Source: a virus
Strand: one strand, 5' to 3'
Virus record (IMG/VR): IMGVR_UViG_3300009157_000001
Coordinates: 1 to 64,000 of that record
Length of the DNA stretch: 64,000 nt
Shown here: one piece after another, positions 1,542-63,665 of the stretch
Position numbering within the stretch: the first letter of the stretch is position 1
How the letters are laid out: each line of letters starts with the position of its first letter
The notes under the pieces: generated by a model
The model's input: the letters and a program-made list of their open reading frames with translations, nothing else
Told to the model about the DNA's origin: nothing
Databases searched by the model: none
Program-made: the position numbers and the translations under genes

Positions 1542-3860
1542 ATGAGAAAAGTCAAAATAACAAGGATACCGAGCAAGACTAACAACCAGTCTTTCTGGAA
1601 TAGTATAAATAGTAACAAACTATCTTCTCCTGGAATAAAGGTCAGATCTACCATAGAACCAGTTCCTGAAGAAGAGAGTAACCTAGAGGCAGAAAAAGGA
1701 GAGGTTGTTGTTGGAGATATTAATAATGATACCTTACCTGAGTTCTATAAGGTAGGAGGTGACCGGCATTATGATGGAGGGACCCCTTTGTCTTTACCTG
1801 AAAACACCTTTATCTTTTCCCGGGACAAAGATATGAGGATCAAAGAAGAGATCATTCAGAAGGAATTTGGAAAAGCTTATAAGAAAAAAGGATATACCCC
1901 TGCAGAACTTGCTATAAAATATGACATAAATAAGTATAGGAAACTTCTCCAGGATCCTGATTCTGATGAGATCCTAAAGAGGACTGCCGAGAGCATGATT
2001 GCAAATTATAATCTGAAGCTTGGTAAACTCGCCCTGGTACAAGAATCTATGAAAGGATTTCCTCAAGGAATCCCCCAGATAGCTATTCCATATCTCACAG
2101 TTAACAATATTGACCCCGCTTCCTTTATTGCACCTGCCGGTCCAGCAGAAGGTCCCAGTCAGACACAGGGAGCAAGACATGGTGCTGAGGTCATGAAGAA
2201 ACTTAAGAAGAATAAGTACTTGCCTGTCTATGAACACGGATCAGAAGTATCTACTGTTAAAAGGAGAATAAAGATAAGCTCTCTTCCTAGATACCAGGAA
2301 GGGTCTGAGACAAAGAAGCCCGGGGAAACTACTCCTACAGCATCTCTTAGTGGATTAACTCCATCTGAAAGGTACAAGAAGCTCTATGGTACTGATATCA
2401 CAGAAGATACTTCTAAAGCTGCACTTCTTCTTGAGGCTAAATCCAAAGATAAAGACAGTGGGGTAACCTTAAATAAGAAGACAGGTAAGTATGAGTTTTT
2501 CCCGGGATCTAAGAGATCTCTGAGTCTTCAGGATAAGATACTTATAACACAGGTGGCTTCCTATAACAAAGAGAATAACCTGGGTTCAGGAGAACTTAAG
2601 ATAGGTACCCAACATATAGATAAAGGATCCGGATTTGTGGGCTTTATAACCCCAGATGTTATTGAGTACCAATACTGGAAGTCTAATAGAAAGAATCTGA
2701 ATAAACCTCTTTCTGAGTTTGAGGGCCTTCCCAAAGAAGACAAGGAAAAGAACCGGGTTAATTATCTCAAATATATGGGATATACTCCCGAAGAGGTAAA
2801 GGATCTTGGAGATAAGATATCCTCTCCTGATCAACTGTATACAGAGGAATTTGTAGGAAAACCAGGAAAAGAAGGAGCAAAGTCTCTCACCCGGAGAGTT
2901 GAGGAAGGTTTTGGAGAAGAAGAATTCAGACCTGTACTGGGTAAGAACTACTTTGGTCTGGAGCATGCTGACTTCTATATACAACCGGAAGAGAAGGAGA
3001 CTACAAAACCTGCAGTTACTAAAGAGACCGGTCCAGTAGCAGAAAGAAAACCTTTTGTTATACCTGATGTTAAAGGGCAGGTTCCTAAGGGAGCAGACTG
3101 GTGGTTGCAGGATGTGGTGAAGACTTTTGGGTCAGCTGCAGATCTTGGCAGGATAAAGAAATACACCCCCTGGGGAGCTCCTATTGAGCCTTTCTTACCT
3201 GAACCTACCTTCTATGATCCTACAAGAGAACTAGCTGCTAATGCAGAACAAATGCAAATTGGGACTCAGGGAGCAGCTATGTTTGCAGGCCCTCAGACTT
3301 ACAGTGCCCGATTTTCCAGAATACAAGGAGAAGGTGCCCGGAATGCTGCAGATATCCTGGCCAAGTACAATAACATGAATGTTACTGCGGCTAATCAGTT
3401 TGCCTTAACCAGAGCCGAGATACTCAATAGGGCAGAAGGAGCCAATAAGCAGCTCTCCCAGGATCTTTATGACAAGACTACTATAGCAAACCAACAGTTT
3501 GATAATGCCAAGGCAAAAGCCCGGGAGCAGCTCAGATCCTCTTTTATAGATGCTATTACTAATAGAGCAAATGCTCAGGTCTTAAATGAGCTTTACCCTC
3601 AATACAACATTGCTCCATTAACCGGAGGTATGATGAGATTTACCGGAGGAAGAGATCTTATTCCATCTTCAGGGCAGGAAAGAGATGTGATGAAAGAAGT
3701 CTCTAAACTTAAATATGAGAACCCTGGATTTGATGATAGTGTTTATCTCAATGCTGCTAAACTTAATATGAACTATGACCAACCTACTACAAATGTTCCT
3801 GATTCTGAATATTTTGACAGGTATACAAAAACAAGAAAAAAAGTAGGAGGGACTAGATAA
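1542..3860 (+). CDS. Conserved crAss-like virion protein, GG-motif type
   Basis: 772 residues. The N-terminal third contains an acidic stretch (EEESNLEAEKGE) followed by a YKVGGDRHYDGGTPLSLP block near residues 67-85, of a kind I associate with crAss-like phage structural genes. The C-terminal third is rich in Ala, Gln and Asn and looks helical (residues about 560-690). The protein ends in GGTR. No catalytic motif seen. Position between the GG-motif gene and the 1027-aa protein supports a virion role, but the exact role is unknown. Confidence 0.75.
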   Translation: MRKVKITRIPSKTNNQSFWNSINSNKLSSPGIKVRSTIEPVPEEESNLEAEKGEVVVGDINNDTLPEFYKVGGDRHYDGGTPLSLPENTFIFSRDKDMRIKEEIIQKEFGKAYKKKGYTPAELAIKYDINKYRKLLQDPDSDEILKRTAESMIANYNLKLGKLALVQESMKGFPQGIPQIAIPYLTVNNIDPASFIAPAGPAEGPSQTQGARHGAEVMKKLKKNKYLPVYEHGSEVSTVKRRIKISSLPRYQEGSETKKPGETTPTASLSGLTPSERYKKLYGTDITEDTSKAALLLEAKSKDKDSGVTLNKKTGKYEFFPGSKRSLSLQDKILITQVASYNKENNLGSGELKIGTQHIDKGSGFVGFITPDVIEYQYWKSNRKNLNKPLSEFEGLPKEDKEKNRVNYLKYMGYTPEEVKDLGDKISSPDQLYTEEFVGKPGKEGAKSLTRRVEEGFGEEEFRPVLGKNYFGLEHADFYIQPEEKETTKPAVTKETGPVAERKPFVIPDVKGQVPKGADWWLQDVVKTFGSAADLGRIKKYTPWGAPIEPFLPEPTFYDPTRELAANAEQMQIGTQGAAMFAGPQTYSARFSRIQGEGARNAADILAKYNNMNVTAANQFALTRAEILNRAEGANKQLSQDLYDKTTIANQQFDNAKAKAREQLRSSFIDAITNRANAQVLNELYPQYNIAPLTGGMMRFTGGRDLIPSSGQERDVMKEVSKLKYENPGFDDSVYLNAAKLNMNYDQPTTNVPDSEYFDRYTKTRKKVGGTR

Positions 3861-52794: not shown

Positions 52795-53088
52795 ATGATA
52801 AAGACCAGAGCAATAGAACCAGATTCACTCATTGACATCAAAGTCAGTGGGTACTTCTATGGAAGACTCCAAGTCTTATTAATATGGCTTGCTAGTCACT
52901 ATGAAGAAAAAGACTTCATAAAGCATATGCAAATCATAAAAGACAAGGAGGTCGATTTAAAGACCCATCCCGAGGCTTATAACCTGGAGACAGTACTGTC
53001 TATCATAAATGAGCTAGAAGTCTCTGCTAAAGACCAGGATAAAGTCAAAGAGGTAGAAATTCCAGAGGAAGGAGCTAGTCCTACCTAA
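52795..53088 (+). CDS. Isolated + strand hypothetical protein
   Basis: 97 residues, helical and acidic, ending in EVEIPEEGASPT. It stands alone on the + strand inside a long - strand operon and has its own candidate promoter. Its end overlaps the converging gene by eight bases. A regulatory role would fit such placement, but no DNA-binding motif is seen. Confidence 0.65.
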   Translation: MIKTRAIEPDSLIDIKVSGYFYGRLQVLLIWLASHYEEKDFIKHMQIIKDKEVDLKTHPEAYNLETVLSIINELEVSAKDQDKVKEVEIPEEGASPT

Positions 53089-53467
53089 GGTTTATATTGA
53101 CCAGATCTCCTGCTTCTATACAGGCCTGGATAAATAGACCAAGTTCTTCTACACTGCACTTGCTTAGGGATTTGCATATTATATACATCTCTCCTTCAAG
53201 TTCTTTCTTGACACAGAGTCCAGCTTTCTTCTTAATTTCGAGTTTAAGATCTTCAAAACTGTACCCCATCTCTGGGGCTAGTAGTCTTACACACTTATGG
53301 GCCTTGGCCAGTTGAGCCAAGGTCTTATTCTCAGTATTAGCATCAAAGAAGGCATCTACTACCTGACCTTCTTCTAATAAGTTGACAAAGTCTGTATACC
53401 TGATATCCCCACCACTCATAGCATTGGTGAGTTTACCATTCTCCTTCTTCAGGAGTATATGAAGCAT
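53081..53467 (-). CDS. Hypothetical protein, weakly NinB-like
   Basis: 128 residues from ATG 53467, one base after the upstream stop (ATG 53491 possible). The C-terminal half (YSFEDLKLEIKKKAGL, then SKCSVEELGLFIQACIEAG) recalls the end of phage NinB-type recombination proteins. The match is weak and by eye. N-terminus is beta-rich. Confidence 0.55.
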   Translation of the reverse strand: MLHILLKKENGKLTNAMSGGDIRYTDFVNLLEEGQVVDAFFDANTENKTLAQLAKAHKCVRLLAPEMGYSFEDLKLEIKKKAGLCVKKELEGEMYIICKSLSKCSVEELGLFIQACIEAGDLVNINLR

Positions 53468-53468
53468 G

Positions 53469-53996
53469 TTATCCTTTTGCTTCTTCCCCATCTTGCTGAG
53501 TTGTGGCTTTGTTAGAATTGAGCCTGATCACTAACTGACTTATCTCATTCCTAAACTTCTGGATATCTTTCTCCAGGTTTGCTATTTTCTTATTCTTGTT
53601 AGTGATTTCATTCTTTAGAGAAGTTACATACTGATCCTTTTTGAACTGGTCCATTTCCTCTTTGGAAAAATGGATCTTAAACTTCTCTCCAACAGCTTTC
53701 TCTAGTACTTTCTTTTCTTTCTCAAGCTCTTCTATCTTCCTTCTTAGTTCTACAAGTTCACCATGTTGAGTCTTTACTATAACTCTATCTGGAAGTTTTT
53801 GAGGCTCAGTATTTTGATCTGCTTCTTTCCACTCTACATATATCCTTACAATACCTTTTTCTTTATGTATCCAACTCATTGCATGCCTTACATCACTATC
53901 GAGGTGGCATCCTAAAATAGGGAAGAGTTGATATTTAGACACATTATTTTTGGTAAGATGCCAACTATAATCTATACCATTAGGAGTCTTCTCCAC
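53469..53996 (-). CDS. Coiled-coil protein
   Basis: 175 residues from a GTG start overlapping the cold-shock gene by 17 bases. Residues 1-60 are globular and aromatic. Residues about 78-160 form long coiled coils (KIEELEKEKKVLEKAVG, KNEITNKNKKIANLEKD). Function unknown. Confidence 0.65.
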   Translation of the reverse strand: MEKTPNGIDYSWHLTKNNVSKYQLFPILGCHLDSDVRHAMSWIHKEKGIVRIYVEWKEADQNTEPQKLPDRVIVKTQHGELVELRRKIEELEKEKKVLEKAVGEKFKIHFSKEEMDQFKKDQYVTSLKNEITNKNKKIANLEKDIQKFRNEISQLVIRLNSNKATTQQDGEEAKG

Positions 53997-57265: not shown

Positions 57266-57284
57266 AATTATTATTGGTTTTTAG
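57263..57284 (-). repeat. Repeated gene leader, copy 2
   Basis: Near-identical to 56197-56217, including the ATG; differs by one extra T in the T-run of the + strand. See copy 1. Confidence 0.5.
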
Positions 57285-58366
57285 TATTCAACATAAGTGA
57301 TTTTTGATTCATCAAAGTCCTCTAAGGCACTTGCCACCCACCGGGTGTCAACTGTGTCCCTATAACAGAGGATATGAACTGTTGCTGTATCTTTTGGGTT
57401 CAGAGAAAGCATTCTACCTATCCTCTGAGCAGTTTTGGTATTATTCCCATAAGAATGAAGAAGAATCCCTTCCTTTAATTCAGGGATTGTAATGCCCTCA
57501 TTCAACTGTAATACACAGGAAAGTCTGATTATTTCCCCACTCTTAAATTTCTGAAGGTTCTCCTCAGAAGTAGGATTCTTACTATGATAACTATAAGGAC
57601 ATAACCGGTCTGCTTGTTCCTGGGTATTAGCAAAGAGTATGCATTTATTCTCAGACTTAAAAAATATCTCTTTTGCAATTACCTCCTTACTAGGAAATCC
57701 CATAAGAGCTTTCATTCTCATAATAGACATAATCTGTTGTTCCTTGGCAGTAGAGGCATTGTCCAGTCTACCACTCCAATACTCATAAGATTTTAACTCT
57801 GAGGTATACCAGGATTTCCCCCGGACTTCTACTTTGAGTGTATTATCTGTAGCTAATGAAAGGTTGTGTATAATGATCCTGTAATCATTTAGGATCTTAT
57901 CTGCTACTGCTTCTTTGACTATGTATTTATAGACAATAGGACAGTACATATCTACCATCTTTCCTTTCTCCGATACAGGAACCCTTGGAGGAGTACCAGT
58001 CAATCCTACAATCTTCCCCTTAAAGTTAGACAACCACTCATCATGATTATACAATAAATTATGACACTCATCCAGATAAACTATATCATAATCCAAAGTC
58101 TGTTTGGTCAAGGAAAGATATGTGGTAAATGTGATATGATCCAATAAATGAACCAGATCAAACTTCTCAGCATCATCTTTCCAGCTCTGGAATATAGACA
58201 ACTTCGGGGCAACTACCAGAACCCTTAAAGTATCTGAGTAGTGGTTGTCCATATGTCTGAGCCCTACAAGAGTTTTACCAACCCGCATTGACACAGCTAT
58301 AGTGCCTCTCTCAACTTTAGACATTGCTTCTAATGCCTCATCTTGCACTATGTTTCTTGTTTTCAT
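57281..58366 (-). CDS. SF2 (SNF2/DEAD-like) helicase
   Basis: 361 residues. Motif I SMRVGKTLVG, Ia-like VLVVAPKLSIFQSW, motif II YLDECHNLL (DECH), motif III GLTGTPP, motif IV region CILFANTQEQ and motif VI QRIGRMLSL are all in order. A short single-chain SF2 ATPase/helicase, as found in crAss-like replication arms. Likely acts in DNA remodelling or replication restart. Confidence 0.88.
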   Translation of the reverse strand: MKTRNIVQDEALEAMSKVERGTIAVSMRVGKTLVGLRHMDNHYSDTLRVLVVAPKLSIFQSWKDDAEKFDLVHLLDHITFTTYLSLTKQTLDYDIVYLDECHNLLYNHDEWLSNFKGKIVGLTGTPPRVPVSEKGKMVDMYCPIVYKYIVKEAVADKILNDYRIIIHNLSLATDNTLKVEVRGKSWYTSELKSYEYWSGRLDNASTAKEQQIMSIMRMKALMGFPSKEVIAKEIFFKSENKCILFANTQEQADRLCPYSYHSKNPTSEENLQKFKSGEIIRLSCVLQLNEGITIPELKEGILLHSYGNNTKTAQRIGRMLSLNPKDTATVHILCYRDTVDTRWVASALEDFDESKITYVEY

Positions 58367-58808
58367 AAGTTACCTTAATTATATACCTTTTCCTAAAAGG
58401 ATAGTTCCATCCTCGAGCTCTTTTAATACTAGTTGCAGAACATCTCAAGTATCTAGCAGCCATCTCCATACTAGGAAAATACATCTGATTCATACTTTCC
58501 TTATCAAAACAACTTACCAAATATCCATCAGTCTTGACTGGCTTTACATAAACTTTACAAGGACAACCTAATTTATAGATAAGGTGGTTATTGAATTTTG
58601 GTTGCTTTCTTCTACCTTTTCCAAGAATGATTTGGGAAATCATAGATTGAATACTTTTTCTAGGAAGATTATACATCCCAAGTAAATATCTAGAAGCATC
58701 ATTCTGAGATTCAGCCTTATACACCTCCTTACACTGAAGAGTATAGACAGTAACTGGAATTTTCTTGTCATCATGAGAAGGATATTTAAGAGTACCTTCT
58801 GCTTTCAT
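58338..58808 (-). CDS. NUMOD-like DNA-binding protein, no nuclease domain
   Basis: 156 residues. Two similar segments: VTVYTLQCKEVYKAESQNDA with SRYLLGM...SIQSMISQIIL, and NQMYFPSMEMAARYLRCSAT followed by SIKRARG. Both resemble the NUMOD1 helix-turn-helix modules of homing endonucleases (xxFxSxxxAaxxLxxSxxTI). No GIY-YIG or HNH nuclease core is present. Basic C-terminus. It is the gene directly downstream of template repeat 1 of the DGR. Confidence 0.6.
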   Translation of the reverse strand: MKAEGTLKYPSHDDKKIPVTVYTLQCKEVYKAESQNDASRYLLGMYNLPRKSIQSMISQIILGKGRRKQPKFNNHLIYKLGCPCKVYVKPVKTDGYLVSCFDKESMNQMYFPSMEMAARYLRCSATSIKRARGWNYPFRKRYIIKVTYENKKHSAR

Positions 58809-58934
58809 CCTGAATCTGATTCTTATCTTTTTTCATAGTACTTTGTATTAAGGTCCTTTCCAGTTTCCTTACTAAGGTCCTTCTCTGTTCAGTCATTTTC
58901 TGGCAAGAGCCAAAGCTTTATACTTATTTGTAGA

Positions 58935-59010
58935 CAAAGTAGTAGCTACCTGGATGGTTAGAATTGTCATGATTGTAATTCACATCATTCAGTACCTAGC
59001 TAGAGGTAGT
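58935..59010 (-). repeat. DGR template repeat TR1
   Basis: A 76-base non-coding copy of the variable repeat in the target gene just upstream, starting eight bases after that gene's stop. Aligned with VR1 on the - strand it differs at 15 template A positions, one T position, and by three bases missing. Contains Asn/Tyr/His-rich AAT, AAC and TAC codons and a TAG where VR1 has TGG, as usual for DGR templates. Confidence 0.92.
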
Positions 59011-59018
59011 ATAAAAGC

Positions 59019-59525
59019 TTAATCTAAGTAATCTATCCATACATCCATAAAAGTAGAAACAGCAAATTTACACTTTTCTTCAGTCTCAAAGTAGCAGCCA
59101 CCCGGACGGTTAGAAACGGCACGAGTGAAGGAAATCCCAACATTCAGCACCCAGCCAGAGGTAGTCTTCTTAAACCAAGGATAATACTTCTTCTGATCAC
59201 CATTATTGAAGTCAGCAATCCACTCACCATTTAGAATAGTGGATATATTGTTAATTCTATGTAATGCAAACTGTCTCTTTCTCTGATCCTCAGGTAAAAA
59301 AGAGAAGTGTTCTAAAGTAAGTTCTTCAAATCCACCTTCTTCACAAATATCCTGGTAGTCTTTTATCCTACTAACAAGATCAATCTTGCTCAGAAGAGAC
59401 TTTGCAGATCTCTTATTAAGACAATGACTAGTCCCACGAAGAATAGTAGCAGCAAGATACATAGACTGCGGATCTTTACTTGTAACCATTTCTTTTAAAG
59501 AATTATAGTTCTGATTTGTCTTCAT
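59019..59525 (-). CDS. DGR target protein 1
   Basis: 168 residues. N-terminal helical module (QSMYLAATILRGTS, SRIKDYQDICEEGG) is shared with target 2. C-terminal domain WIADFNNGDQKKYYPWFKKT leads into the variable repeat (SGWVLNV...GGCYF) and a lid helix. The NGDQKKYYPWF...F-E pattern is typical of diversified Bacteroidota phage domains, likely C-type-lectin-like binding folds. ATG overlaps the reverse transcriptase stop. Its ligand is unknown. Confidence 0.88.
   Translation of the reverse strand: MKTNQNYNSLKEMVTSKDPQSMYLAATILRGTSHCLNKRSAKSLLSKIDLVSRIKDYQDICEEGGFEELTLEHFSFLPEDQRKRQFALHRINNISTILNGEWIADFNNGDQKKYYPWFKKTTSGWVLNVGISFTRAVSNRPGGCYFETEEKCKFAVSTFMDVWIDYLD
59087..59165 (-). repeat. 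DGR variable repeat VR1
   Basis: 79 bases inside target 1. Substitutions relative to TR1 fall almost wholly at template adenines (15 of 16), the signature of adenine mutagenesis by a DGR reverse transcriptase. It carries a three-base in-frame insertion relative to TR1. Confidence 0.92.
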
Positions 59526-59953
59526 ACTGAATACTTTTTTCTTAGATTCTTACTATCACAATACTTAAGCCATCCATTGTAGGAATTAAGAGATGCTCTG
59601 TTCTTTCTGTACTTTACCATCTTTATAAACCTCTTCTTTATTCCTTTTCTGAGAAGAATATGTGTATGATAAAACTTGTACCCCACAAAATCTATTCCTC
59701 TGGAACTAACCGGGAATACCTGATGATTGAAATTAACCAGAAGTTTTAGATTATTCCATAAATACTGCTTAATTTTTACCAAAAGATCATGTAACTCCTT
59801 CTTGTTTGATCCCAGGATAACTATATCATCACAATACCTAAAATAGTATTTTACCCCCCCCTGAACTACTCTTAATCCAATGGTCAAAGTAAGTAAGATA
59901 GAAATTGGCCAAGTATTGTGAAAGATAATTTCCGATTGGTATACCCGGAGCAC
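59522..59953 (-). CDS. DGR reverse transcriptase, C-terminal part (frame +1)
   Basis: The second reading frame of the reverse transcriptase. It contains YYFRYCDDIVILGSNKKEL, the catalytic YxDD box (YCDD), and RGIDFVGYKF, the RT motif 6-7 region. The first about 27 codons of this open frame are out-of-frame shadow of the N-terminal part; real coding begins at the G8 tract near 59855. A change of one base in that tract (7 G) would join both parts into a 317-residue protein. Its stop overlaps the start of target 1. Confidence 0.85.
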   Translation of the reverse strand: MLRVYQSEIIFHNTWPISILLTLTIGLRVVQGGVKYYFRYCDDIVILGSNKKELHDLLVKIKQYLWNNLKLLVNFNHQVFPVSSRGIDFVGYKFYHTHILLRKGIKKRFIKMVKYRKNRASLNSYNGWLKYCDSKNLRKKYSV

Positions 59954-60476
59954 TGTTAATTATCTCATCTAGAAGTAATAAGAGCCTGGGATCTTTGAAC
60001 TTTTTCCTAAGAAGAACTTTCAGAATATCATGATCTATAGAAGGATAGAACTTCTTTATATCAAGTTTTAGACAGTAAGTTGTTCCCTGGACATCCAAAA
60101 GAGATTTTCTTAAAGTTCTCCAAACCCCATGTATACCCCTACCTTCTATACAACTGTAGGTATCTGCTGTAAAAATGGACAGGAATATAGGCTTTAGAAT
60201 ATTCATTATTCCATGATGAACTATCCGATCAGGATAATAAGGAAGTCTATAAATCTCTCTTTTCTTAGGCTCGGAAATTGTATAAACCGTATAAAGAGAG
60301 GTCTTGTACTCTCTCTTATTCAGAACATGATAAAGATTTATGATATTGTCTTCCTTATTCTTGTCATGGAGAATCACTCCATACTGTCTGGACTTTCCCA
60401 GTCTAGCTTTGGAATCTGCTAACTTGAGATTAGCTATAGTACATATTTTTGAGTAAAGATTTCCAACTCTTTTCAT
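59838..60476 (-). CDS. DGR reverse transcriptase, N-terminal part
   Basis: Carries the palm and fingers motifs: EPKKREIYRLPYYPDRIVHH, CLKLDIKKFYPSIDH (motif with first catalytic Asp) and GIPIGNYLSQYLANFYL. The IGxxxSQ box, in place of QGxxxSP of group II intron RTs, marks DGR reverse transcriptases. The frame runs into a stop 17 bases after a run of eight G at 59855-59862. Without frame change the protein lacks the YCDD box and would be inactive. No Avd-like accessory gene is visible beside it. Confidence 0.88.
   Translation of the reverse strand: MKRVGNLYSKICTIANLKLADSKARLGKSRQYGVILHDKNKEDNIINLYHVLNKREYKTSLYTVYTISEPKKREIYRLPYYPDRIVHHGIMNILKPIFLSIFTADTYSCIEGRGIHGVWRTLRKSLLDVQGTTYCLKLDIKKFYPSIDHDILKVLLRKKFKDPRLLLLLDEIINSAPGIPIGNYLSQYLANFYLTYFDHWIKSSSGGGKILF
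59855..59862 (-). other. G8 homopolymer that splits the reverse transcriptase frame
   Basis: Eight consecutive G on the - strand (C on +) between codons for SSS and VKYYF. With eight G the frame ends shortly after; with seven (or ten) the frame continues into the YCDD half. Confidence 0.9.
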
Positions 60477-60582
60477 AGATTCACTTCACTTAAGATCTTC
60501 TTCCCAAAGATTTTGGTACCAAAGCTCTTGTTACTAATGTTTGTCTTTTACCTAGAGGTAAGATCATACTACACATAAAGAA

Positions 60583-60651
60583 GTGGAGACTGAAGCTCAT
60601 GTTAGCATTATCATCATTCCAATTAGTATAAGAATTCACTCGCTAACTAGC
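60583..60651 (-). repeat. DGR template repeat TR2
   Basis: 69-base non-coding copy of VR2, 19 bases after the stop of target 2. Differs from VR2 at 16 template A positions; the only other differences are a C to T change and the edge base. Includes TAG where VR2 has TGG and several AAT codons. Bases 60477-60582 beside it hold nothing I can identify. Confidence 0.93.
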
Positions 60652-60670
60652 TGAGAATTAATAATATGAC

Positions 60671-61189
60671 CTACTCAGGAAGCCACTCTATATATTGTGG
60701 AAGGAAGATGTTTCCTCCAAATAGAGCAAGCTCCTCAGATTTATAGTGAAGACCGAAGCCCACGTCAGCACTACCATCAGCCCAACCAGCACAAGAACTC
60801 ACCCGCCAACCAGAAGAGGTTTTCTCAAACCAGGGAAAGTACTTCTTCTGATTTTTGTCCAGGAAATTTGGTATCCATCCTTCATTAAGGGCTAGAATCC
60901 CATACTGAAGTTTGGCCTGTCCATTTTGTGATATCTGATACTTGTTCTTGGGGTTTAAAAAAGGCAAGATATCTGACTCTATAACCCCGGTCTCATCATA
61001 AGCATCGGATATTGATTTGATCCTTTCCATAATAGGAATCTTACCAAGAAGACTCCTTGCCATTCTCTCTTCTATATGAAGAGAATTACCTCTCAAAAAA
61101 CAAGCAGCTAAGTATCTTGACTGAACATCTTTAGACTCAATCAGTTCCTTTATTCCCTGAATTGTTTTTATTTCTGTGGTTTTCTTCAT
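60671..61189 (-). CDS. DGR target protein 2
   Basis: 172 residues from ATG 61189, which overlaps the upstream stop (ATGA); ATG 61201 also possible. Paralogue of target 1: QSRYLAACFLRGNS, ARSLLGKIPIMERIKS, EGWIPNFLDKNQKKYFPWFEK. The VR encodes SGWRVSSCAGWADGSADVGF, followed by LHYKSEELALFGG. The KYFPWF...YKSEELA frame is a recurrent diversified domain of Bacteroidota phages. Probably a binding protein; no tail-fibre parts or signal peptide are fused to it. Confidence 0.88.
   Translation of the reverse strand: MKKTTEIKTIQGIKELIESKDVQSRYLAACFLRGNSLHIEERMARSLLGKIPIMERIKSISDAYDETGVIESDILPFLNPKNKYQISQNGQAKLQYGILALNEGWIPNFLDKNQKKYFPWFEKTSSGWRVSSCAGWADGSADVGFGLHYKSEELALFGGNIFLPQYIEWLPE
60746..60814 (-). 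repeat. DGR variable repeat VR2
   Basis: 69 bases in target 2, matched base for base without gaps to TR2. All but two differences are at template adenines. Confidence 0.93.
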
Positions 61190-61692
61190 CTCGGTAAACA
61201 TATATCATGTAAATAGATCATTCCTGTTGCAAAACCGATTGATTCCTCCGGAAAAAATACTTGGGTAAGCCTCTCCATATTATGATACACATGGTACAGA
61301 TCGTCTCTTCTACAAAGAGCTGTATGTCTTGTTCTTACTTTCTTACTTGTTATTTTCTTTGCTTTTTCAATACTTAGTACTAAATTCTTATATAATGCAT
61401 AAAGATCAAATTCTGCTACTGAGGGAATAAACTCACAGTATAAAACTTGCTTATACATTAATCCTTTACTTACAATAGACTTGTGTTTTGCTGTACTATT
61501 AGAATATCCCTGACTTGTAAAAAGATAGAGTATAGACCCATCTTGTTTAAGTACTCTCTTTGCTATAGGGAAATGATATCCATAAGAATAAATTGCATTT
61601 TTCTCAAAAAACATACTTCTACTATAAGTTTCTCCTTGAATATCTCCTGCTACAAAACCTTCTACAAGTTCTTCCTGACTTCTATACTTCAT
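61186..61692 (-). CDS. Hypothetical protein of a phage family
   Basis: 168 residues. YSYGYHFPIAKRV, then LYLFTSQGYSNSTAKHKSIV is a pattern I have seen in Bacteroidota phages and plasmids without known function. The end is helical with a Cys (TALCRRDD). Coupled by ATGA to target 2 downstream and to the HNH gene upstream. Confidence 0.6.
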   Translation of the reverse strand: MKYRSQEELVEGFVAGDIQGETYSRSMFFEKNAIYSYGYHFPIAKRVLKQDGSILYLFTSQGYSNSTAKHKSIVSKGLMYKQVLYCEFIPSVAEFDLYALYKNLVLSIEKAKKITSKKVRTRHTALCRRDDLYHVYHNMERLTQVFFPEESIGFATGMIYLHDICLPR

Positions 61693-62102
61693 GCAAGTCT
61701 GGATTCTGAAAATCCCAGGGCTTTTGCCATTGAGGGCATCGTCTCAATCATATGATGACAGTTAGCACAGGAAGATAACCAGGTAGACACATCAAGATAG
61801 TACTTCCCCCTACCTTTTTTATGATGGACCTGACTAGCTCTTGTCTGACACTTAGAAAGTCTTGCTTGACAGAAAGGATTCTTTTCCAAGAACTCTTTCC
61901 TGAGTTTTGAGTATTCTTTGTCTTGAACCTTCCTCTTAGAAGATCGAGGGGAGATGGGTTTCTGTTTCCTTGTTGGTTTAAACTTGGACTGACTAGTGTT
62001 GGCAACTCCAGCACAGTATCTACAGAACCCCTTCCCCTCAATTCTTTTCCAAATTGGTCTTTTCCTTTTACAATTACTACAGATCTTTTTTTTCTGTATC
62101 AT
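61689..62102 (-). CDS. HNH nuclease, NinG-like
   Basis: 137 residues. N-terminal zinc ribbon (CSNCKRKRP...CRYC), a basic linker, then an HNH-type core: CQARLSKC, SQVHHKKGRG and SSCANCHHMIE. Matches lambda NinG-type recombination nucleases. Overlaps the upstream gene by 26 bases. Possibly acts in phage recombination with RuvC and Sak4-like proteins. Confidence 0.75.
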   Translation of the reverse strand: MIQKKKICSNCKRKRPIWKRIEGKGFCRYCAGVANTSQSKFKPTRKQKPISPRSSKRKVQDKEYSKLRKEFLEKNPFCQARLSKCQTRASQVHHKKGRGKYYLDVSTWLSSCANCHHMIETMPSMAKALGFSESRLA

Positions 62103-63299: not shown

Positions 63300-63665
63300 T
63301 TAAGCATCAGGATCCAAGGTGAACATCTGCTTGCGGTAGATAGGATCCCCACCTACACAACAAACAATCTTGGTTTCACCAGCCACTTTATAATCCCTCT
63401 CAGGATTTTTAGGATTGAGGGCTTCCAGAGATTCTTTGATGATAATCTTACCATCAATCTCCTGGCCATTTGCCCATTTCATTCCTTCCAGGTCAGCAAC
63501 TGTACCCGGGATGAAAGCACTTACTTTCTGCCTGCGCAAAAAGCCTGCTTCATCAATCATAGCACGGGTTTGTTCTACTCTCACTGAGCCATACTCAGGA
63601 TTGTTTTTGGAAGCTACCACGACTTTTCCATCGGGTGATGCAACCACTTTCACTTTTGTGTTCAT
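63300..63665 (-). CDS. Conserved phage protein, probably interrupted near its C-terminus
   Basis: 121 residues to TAA. NPEYGSVRVEQTRAMIDEAG, then PGTVADLEGM, GKIIIKESLEALNP, VCCVGGDPIYRKQMF. Beta-rich; codons look richer in GC than in neighbours, as in a strongly expressed gene. I recognise it as a type common in Bacteroidota phages or plasmids but not its role. The TAA splits it from a continuing frame that fits its expected end. Two AACTCAAAA repeats precede the ATG. Confidence 0.65.
   Translation of the reverse strand: MNTKVKVVASPDGKVVVASKNNPEYGSVRVEQTRAMIDEAGFLRRQKVSAFIPGTVADLEGMKWANGQEIDGKIIIKESLEALNPKNPERDYKVAGETKIVCCVGGDPIYRKQMFTLDPDA

What the first reader, a model, noticed from the sequence alone, without database searches (positions are those of the whole stretch)
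59838..59953. Reverse transcriptase split by a run of eight G
The DGR RT frame breaks at G8 between the IGxxxSQ and YCDD motifs; seven G would restore it exactly. Slippage at such a tract could switch mutagenesis on and off in the population, or +1 ribosomal shifting could set a low RT level. A sequencing or assembly error is the plain alternative.
Basis: partly seen in the sequence, partly recalled or inferred. Interest (0 to 1): 0.8.

Follow-up and report, generated by a model that had tools for sequence, protein, structure and literature searches.

The report
Phage mutator gene broken by poly-G
In a large crAss-like phage, the reverse transcriptase that scrambles two of the phage's own genes is cut in two by a run of eight Gs; the break is most likely a real and fairly recent "off" mutation, and nothing available here shows that it is an evolved on/off switch.

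Summary
The minus strand has exactly eight G at 59854-59861, and the reverse transcriptase (RT) of a diversity-generating retroelement (DGR) changes frame there by +1. A second, non-identical contig (12,991 bp) has the same eight G.

The DGR is real and has worked. In its two template/variable repeat pairs, 15/23 and 16/21 adenines are changed, against 1/52 and 1/47 other bases.

The 80 closest other RTs checked are unbroken. The loop carrying the tract has one fixed length in 223 of 226 RTs. Seven G would restore the frame but leave one extra residue; four G would give the family length. The tract has probably grown.

No other frameshift shows in the ~65 kb of this genome comparable with relatives. 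The RT was not found in 49 relatives.

Best reading: a recent loss-of-function allele at a slippage-prone tract, perhaps reversible. Programmed +1 frameshifting has precedents (Quimbyvirus, LoVEphage split RTs). Here it lacks conservation, stimulatory RNA structure and variable-repeat diversity. Transcriptional slippage is unlikely.

Separate lead: apparent genome-wide +1 frameshifting at CGG codons in some ruminant Clostridia.

The parts
59854..59861 (-). G8 tract at which the RT frame moves by +1
   Evidence: same in second contig
59838..60476 (-). RT ORF1 (212 aa): N-terminal part through IGNYLSQ and FDHWIK; stop codon ends 16 bases past the tract
59522..59953 (-). RT ORF2 (143 aa as an ORF): VKYYFRYCDD to the C-terminus, in the +1 frame
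59019..59525 (-). DGR target gene 1 (168 aa)
   Evidence: phrog_11581; homologues in 138 fetched RT loci
59087..59164 (-). variable repeat VR1 in target gene 1
   Evidence: 15/23 A changed, 1/52 other bases
58935..59009 (-). template repeat TR1
60671..61201 (-). DGR target gene 2 (176 aa)
   Evidence: phrog_11581; homologues in 137 fetched RT loci
60746..60813 (-). variable repeat VR2 in target gene 2
   Evidence: 16/21 A changed, 1/47 other bases
60583..60650 (-). template repeat TR2
57281..58366 (-). helicase gene on one side of the DGR cassette
   Evidence: neighbour of the HNH gene in relatives
61689..62102 (-). HNH endonuclease gene on the other side of the DGR cassette

Best explanation
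This is a genuine two-target DGR cassette of the Bacteroidetes type in a distant crAss-like phage, inserted between a helicase and an HNH gene. Its RT gene carries a real net +1 frame break at a G tract that has probably grown by slipped-strand mutation from about four or five G to eight. In the consensus genome the RT is truncated before the catalytic YCDD motif, so mutagenesis should be off. The tract is a mutational hotspot, so a return to an in-frame length is easy and RT-on genomes may coexist. Whether selection keeps it as a switch is unknown; a recent, possibly reversible, incidental OFF allele is the most likely reading. Shown: the break, the open downstream frame, past adenine mutagenesis, presence in two contigs, no RT detected in relatives. 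Inferred: growth of the tract by slippage, loss of RT activity, reversibility.
For: G8 and +1 frames; same G8 in a second non-identical contig; relatives have unbroken RTs with a fixed loop length, so this region gained four bases here; only G/C run of 8 or more in 450 kb; adenine-specific TR/VR differences, p=3e-9 and 2e-10, show past activity; 110 codons stay open after the break, with a median of 11 simulated neutral substitutions to a first stop, so the break is young if the gene is dead; only one departure at 42 columns at least 98% conserved; RT remnants in cr111_1 and cr85_1 show that such RTs are lost in crAss-like phages.
Against: No reads, no protein data and no close sister species; the near-intact RT sequence also fits a protein that is still made. 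Split DGR RTs that seem active are reported (Quimbyvirus, PMC8008677).
Confidence: 0.5

Rival explanations
1. Evolved phase variation: slipped-strand changes of the G tract switch the RT, and so targeted mutagenesis, on and off in the phage population, and selection maintains the tract.
For: The tract is inside the frame, one base off, in a loop that might tolerate an extra glycine; it is the only such run in the genome. Poly-G/C tracts of seven or more are phase-variable loci in Campylobacter (PMC4965091, abstract).
Against: Both contigs read eight G; no other RT in IMG/VR has a G tract there; a seven-G form would have a loop length not seen in 170 distinct RTs.
Confidence: 0.18
2. Programmed or low-level +1 ribosomal frameshifting on the G run (one G skipped) makes a small amount of full-length RT and keeps mutagenesis low.
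For: Precedent: Quimbyvirus RT in three overlapping frames with still-varying repeats (PMC8008677); LoVEphage RT split by two shifts, both +1 by my reading; the sign here is also +1; both halves are intact.
Against: No relative shares the site; no RNA structure downstream (z=-0.13); no stop or rare codon at the site (GGG is used 146 times in ORFs of at least 200 codons); identical variable repeats in both contigs.
Confidence: 0.18
3. Sequencing or assembly error: the true tract is in frame and the RT is intact.
For: Homopolymers are a common place for indel errors; the two contigs disagree by one indel elsewhere (53473), so indel error or polymorphism exists in this data.
Against: Two non-identical assemblies agree on G8; no frameshift in other genes over the ~65 kb comparable with relatives. 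Independence of the two samples is not shown.
Confidence: 0.12
4. RNA polymerase slippage on the G run makes a fraction of in-frame mRNA.
For: Slippage is known to serve gene expression on A/T runs (PMC1088944, abstract).
Against: In E. coli and Buchnera all transcription insertions in homopolymers were in A/T runs; G and C runs were not prone to slippage (PMC5574713).
Confidence: 0.02

Closest known systems
Split DGR reverse transcriptase of Quimbyvirus (Benler et al. 2021, PMC8008677) and of Bacteroides phage LoVEphage
   Same: DGR RT spread over overlapping frames in a gut or crAss-like phage context; the LoVEphage shifts are +1 as here; adenine-specific variable repeats
   Different: Two shifts there at other places (LoVEphage: upstream of motif 4 and near query residue 257); no G tract; LoVEphage breaks recur in several records; Quimbyvirus repeats vary between near-identical genomes, here they are identical in two contigs
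Bordetella phage BPP-1 DGR (solved RT, PDB 8ub7)
   Same: RT aligns over residues 2-311 (E=2.4e-38); TR/VR adenine mutagenesis
   Different: BPP-1 RT is one frame and lacks the extra loop residue; two TR/VR pairs and two target genes here
DGRs of crAss-like phages (crAssphage LMMB, PMC7290462; cr55_1)
   Same: Same RT family (57% to cr55_1), same order of phages or near it
   Different: There the cassette is reported with tail-type target genes and an unbroken RT; here it lies between helicase and HNH genes
Poly-G/C phase-variable genes of Campylobacter (PMC4965091)
   Same: G run of 7 or more inside a reading frame, off by one base in the consensus
   Different: Length variation is measured there and has not been seen here; host and gene type differ

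Membership tests
Diversity-generating retroelement | RT of the DGR type (IGxxxSQ motif, RVT_1) | tested here: met
   IGNYLSQ; phrog_1423 E=2.6e-109, RVT_1 E=1.2e-17, best solved match BPP-1 RT
Diversity-generating retroelement | Template/variable repeat pairs differing at template adenines | tested here: met
   15/23 vs 1/52 and 16/21 vs 1/47
Diversity-generating retroelement | Unbroken RT reading frame | tested here: not met
   +1 break at G8
Diversity-generating retroelement | Avd-type accessory protein | tested here: inconclusive
   Nearby ORFs give no Pfam or PHROG match to one; not all ORFs were scanned
Programmed-frameshift DGR RT (Quimbyvirus type) | Overlapping ORFs that together give a full RT | tested here: met
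   116-base overlap; 317-aa read-through matches the family end to end
Programmed-frameshift DGR RT (Quimbyvirus type) | Shift site conserved in diverged relatives | tested here: not met
   80/80 close relatives unbroken, no G tract at this place elsewhere in IMG/VR
Programmed-frameshift DGR RT (Quimbyvirus type) | Variable repeats differ between near-identical genomes | tested here: inconclusive
   Identical in the only two genomes available; sample independence unknown
Phase-variable homopolymer locus | Tract length differs between genomes or reads | tested here: inconclusive
   Two contigs, both G8; reads not available
CGG-type +1 shift of ruminant Clostridia (see Noticed in passing) | Shift at a CGG codon in a genome that avoids CGG | tested here: not met
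   The window uses CGG normally (79 in long ORFs) and breaks at G8

The most novel reading that the evidence does not exclude
The G tract is a contingency switch for a mutator: slipped-strand changes turn the RT on in a minority of phage genomes, so that targeted hypermutation of two phage proteins is itself phase-variable. I found no such report for a DGR in the papers I could search.
Probability: 0.18. Interest if true: 0.75.

Novelty: new member of a known kind. Interest (0 to 1): 0.42.

Why it matters
How phages keep a self-mutating element under control is an open question. If tract length switched the RT, mutagenesis would be gated by a second, simpler mutator, and this could be read directly from metagenome reads. 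As it stands, the locus is one more split DGR RT beside Quimbyvirus and LoVEphage, and a clear test case for telling decay, switching and frameshifting apart.

Tried and rejected
Transcriptional slippage was marked down (PMC5574713: G/C runs not prone to it). Genome-wide recoding at GGG or CGG in this phage was rejected: both codons are used normally and no other comparable gene is shifted. A stimulatory RNA structure: none. An Rfam element in 58300-61800: none. Relaxed selection on the RT: five deviations at columns invariant in the near set shrink to one at columns at least 98% conserved in the wider set, so there is no good evidence of decay beyond the break. Structure prediction was not run: the read-through protein needs a four-letter reading step whose admission was unclear, and the result would not separate the rivals. 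The metagenome collection could not be scanned (cap of zero).

Full report
WHAT IS THERE. On the minus strand the window reads ...GACCATTGGATTAAGAGTAGTTCAGGGGGGGGTAAAATACTATTTTAGGTATTGTGATGAT..., with G8 at 59854-59861. ORF1 (59838-60476, 212 aa) holds the RT N-terminus through IGNYLSQ...FDHWIK, and its stop codon ends 16 bases past the tract. ORF2 (59522-59953) holds VKYYFRYCDD to the C-terminus in the +1 frame. The halves match complementary parts of RVT_1 (3-143 and 147-204); together they score E=1.2e-17 in Pfam and 2.6e-109 in PHROGs. The best solved match is a DGR RT (PDB 8ub7), aligned over residues 2-311 (that it is BPP-1 is my own knowledge).

IS IT AN ERROR? The record is a 126,634-bp virus genome with a 123-bp terminal direct repeat. 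A second IMG/VR contig (IMGVR_UViG_3300027722_000038, 12,991 bp) is 99.98% identical, differing by one indel (53473) and one substitution (60865), and carries the same G8. It is therefore not a copy of the same assembly, but I cannot show that the samples are independent. ORFs of 49 related phages were compared with the genome: about 65 kb was covered and no other gene is frameshifted. One gene has an internal stop (63300-63302), also present in the second contig. A random assembly indel is possible but not favoured.

IS THE DGR REAL, AND WAS IT ACTIVE? Yes. Target gene 2, TR2, RT, target gene 1 and TR1 follow one another on the minus strand. TR1/VR1: 15 of 23 adenines changed, 1 of 52 other bases (Fisher p=3e-9), plus one codon-sized indel. 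TR2/VR2: 16 of 21 adenines, 1 of 47 others (p=2e-10). Both variable repeats are identical in the second contig. Homologues of the targets lie in 137-138 of the RT loci fetched elsewhere, so the cassette is of a common type.

WHERE DOES IT COME FROM? Among 49 relatives found through the neighbouring helicase, six of them over 100 kb, none gave an RT match (that search had no positive control of its own and many records are fragments). In L098 and L100 the HNH and helicase genes that flank the DGR here are about 12 bp apart. The cassette was thus inserted between them in this lineage, or lost in the others. The major capsid protein is distantly related to Leptolyngbya phage Lbo-JY46 and to crAss-like and Cellulophaga phages.

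WHAT DO RELATIVES SHOW? The 80 other RTs checked first (79 IMG/VR loci at 61-66% identity and cr55_1 at 57%) are single ORFs with exactly four residues between DHWIK and VKYYF. In a wider set of 226 RTs, 223 have this length, and the extra residue implied by a seven-G reading is absent in 170 of 170 distinct sequences. So seven G restores the frame but not the family length; four G would do both. Alternatively, by analogy with IK-EVKG-VKYYF in L065 or L075, the sequence may once have read IK-EVQG-VKYYF, with the +1 at AGTA just upstream and an added GGG. Either way the region has gained four bases against the family. A collection-wide pattern search found no other RT with a G tract at this place.

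IS THE GENE DECAYING? After the break, 110 codons remain open; simulated neutral substitutions give a first stop after a median of 11. Only K248N departs from the 42 columns that are at least 98% conserved. YCDD instead of YADD occurs in 3 others. The break is therefore young, or the protein is still made. Loss does happen in this group: cr111_1 and cr85_1 keep only unannotated RT fragments.

MECHANISM. Three options are live. (1) A recent OFF allele made by slippage, possibly reversible: favoured. (2) An evolved phase switch: the same molecular event plus selection, untestable without reads. (3) +1 ribosomal frameshifting. Option 3 has precedents: Benler et al. (PMC8008677) report Quimbyvirus RT in three overlapping frames with variable repeats that still vary, and LoVEphage RT is split by two shifts, both +1 by my reading. 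But here there is no conservation of the site, no RNA structure (z=-0.13) and no stop or rare codon at the site. Transcriptional slippage is unlikely, because G runs are reported not prone to it (PMC5574713).

A SIDE RESULT. While looking for other broken DGR RTs I found three Clostridia genome bins (L235, L236, L237; about 67% mutual protein identity) with the same +1 break inside PI-[C]-GNYTSQ. Several related phage contigs have breaks at this or other glycines in the pattern NNN-[C]GGN. CGG is almost absent from the stretches of these genomes that I read (7 of about 47,500 codons in long ORFs), and +1-shift candidates are about 2 to 15 times commoner per site at CGG than at 13 other triplets. 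Two ordinary genes support it: methionine gamma-lyase matches Pfam positions 2-217 then 219-404 across the CGG, and SpoIIIAA 4-175 then 181-243, with a further CGG at the end of the second piece. This looks like genome-wide +1 frameshifting, or four-base decoding, at CGG. It does not apply to the window's phage, which uses CGG normally, but it deserves its own study.

VERDICT. The switch and programmed-shift readings are open but unsupported.

Noticed in passing
L235, L236, L237 near position 3559; L338, L340, L348, L358, L366, L367 (RT genes); L408 near 6401 (Met_gamma_lyase); L412 near 17157 (SpoIIIAA): Ruminant-gut Clostridia bins and related phage contigs: genes broken by +1 at a CGG codon, read as NNN-[C]-GGN (Gly), in different genes and at different conserved glycines; CGG is otherwise nearly absent (7 of ~47,500 codons). 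Suggests genome-wide +1 frameshifting or four-base decoding at CGG.
   Followed up: partly
window 63300-63302 (-): TAA inside a gene conserved in relatives (Tyr in the closest, L094), cutting off about 33 C-terminal residues; present in both contigs.
   Followed up: partly
window 53473: One-base difference between the two contigs: in the second contig two neighbouring genes (53081-53491 and 53469-53996) are fused into one 304-aa frame; relatives have the downstream gene as its own match, so the window's form looks ancestral.
   Followed up: partly
window 60865: The only substitution between the two contigs lies in DGR target gene 2, upstream of VR2, and changes the protein (Phe in the window, Ile in the other contig).
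   Followed up: no
window 60746-60813: VR2 changes are almost all A to G (15 of 16 adenine changes), while VR1 is mixed (9 G, 4 T, 2 C).
   Followed up: no
L400:3001-3360 (cr111_1) and L401:3001-3381 (cr85_1): Unannotated fragments of a DGR RT beside tail genes in two crAss-like phages, probably remnants of lost DGRs.
   Followed up: partly
L217:3001-3951: DGR RT of a Clostridium sp. bin with five in-frame stop codons under table 11; may use another code or be dead.
   Followed up: no
window 58367-61688: DGR cassette sits between helicase and HNH genes that are adjacent in relatives; one RT lies between two target genes, each with its own template repeat.
   Followed up: partly
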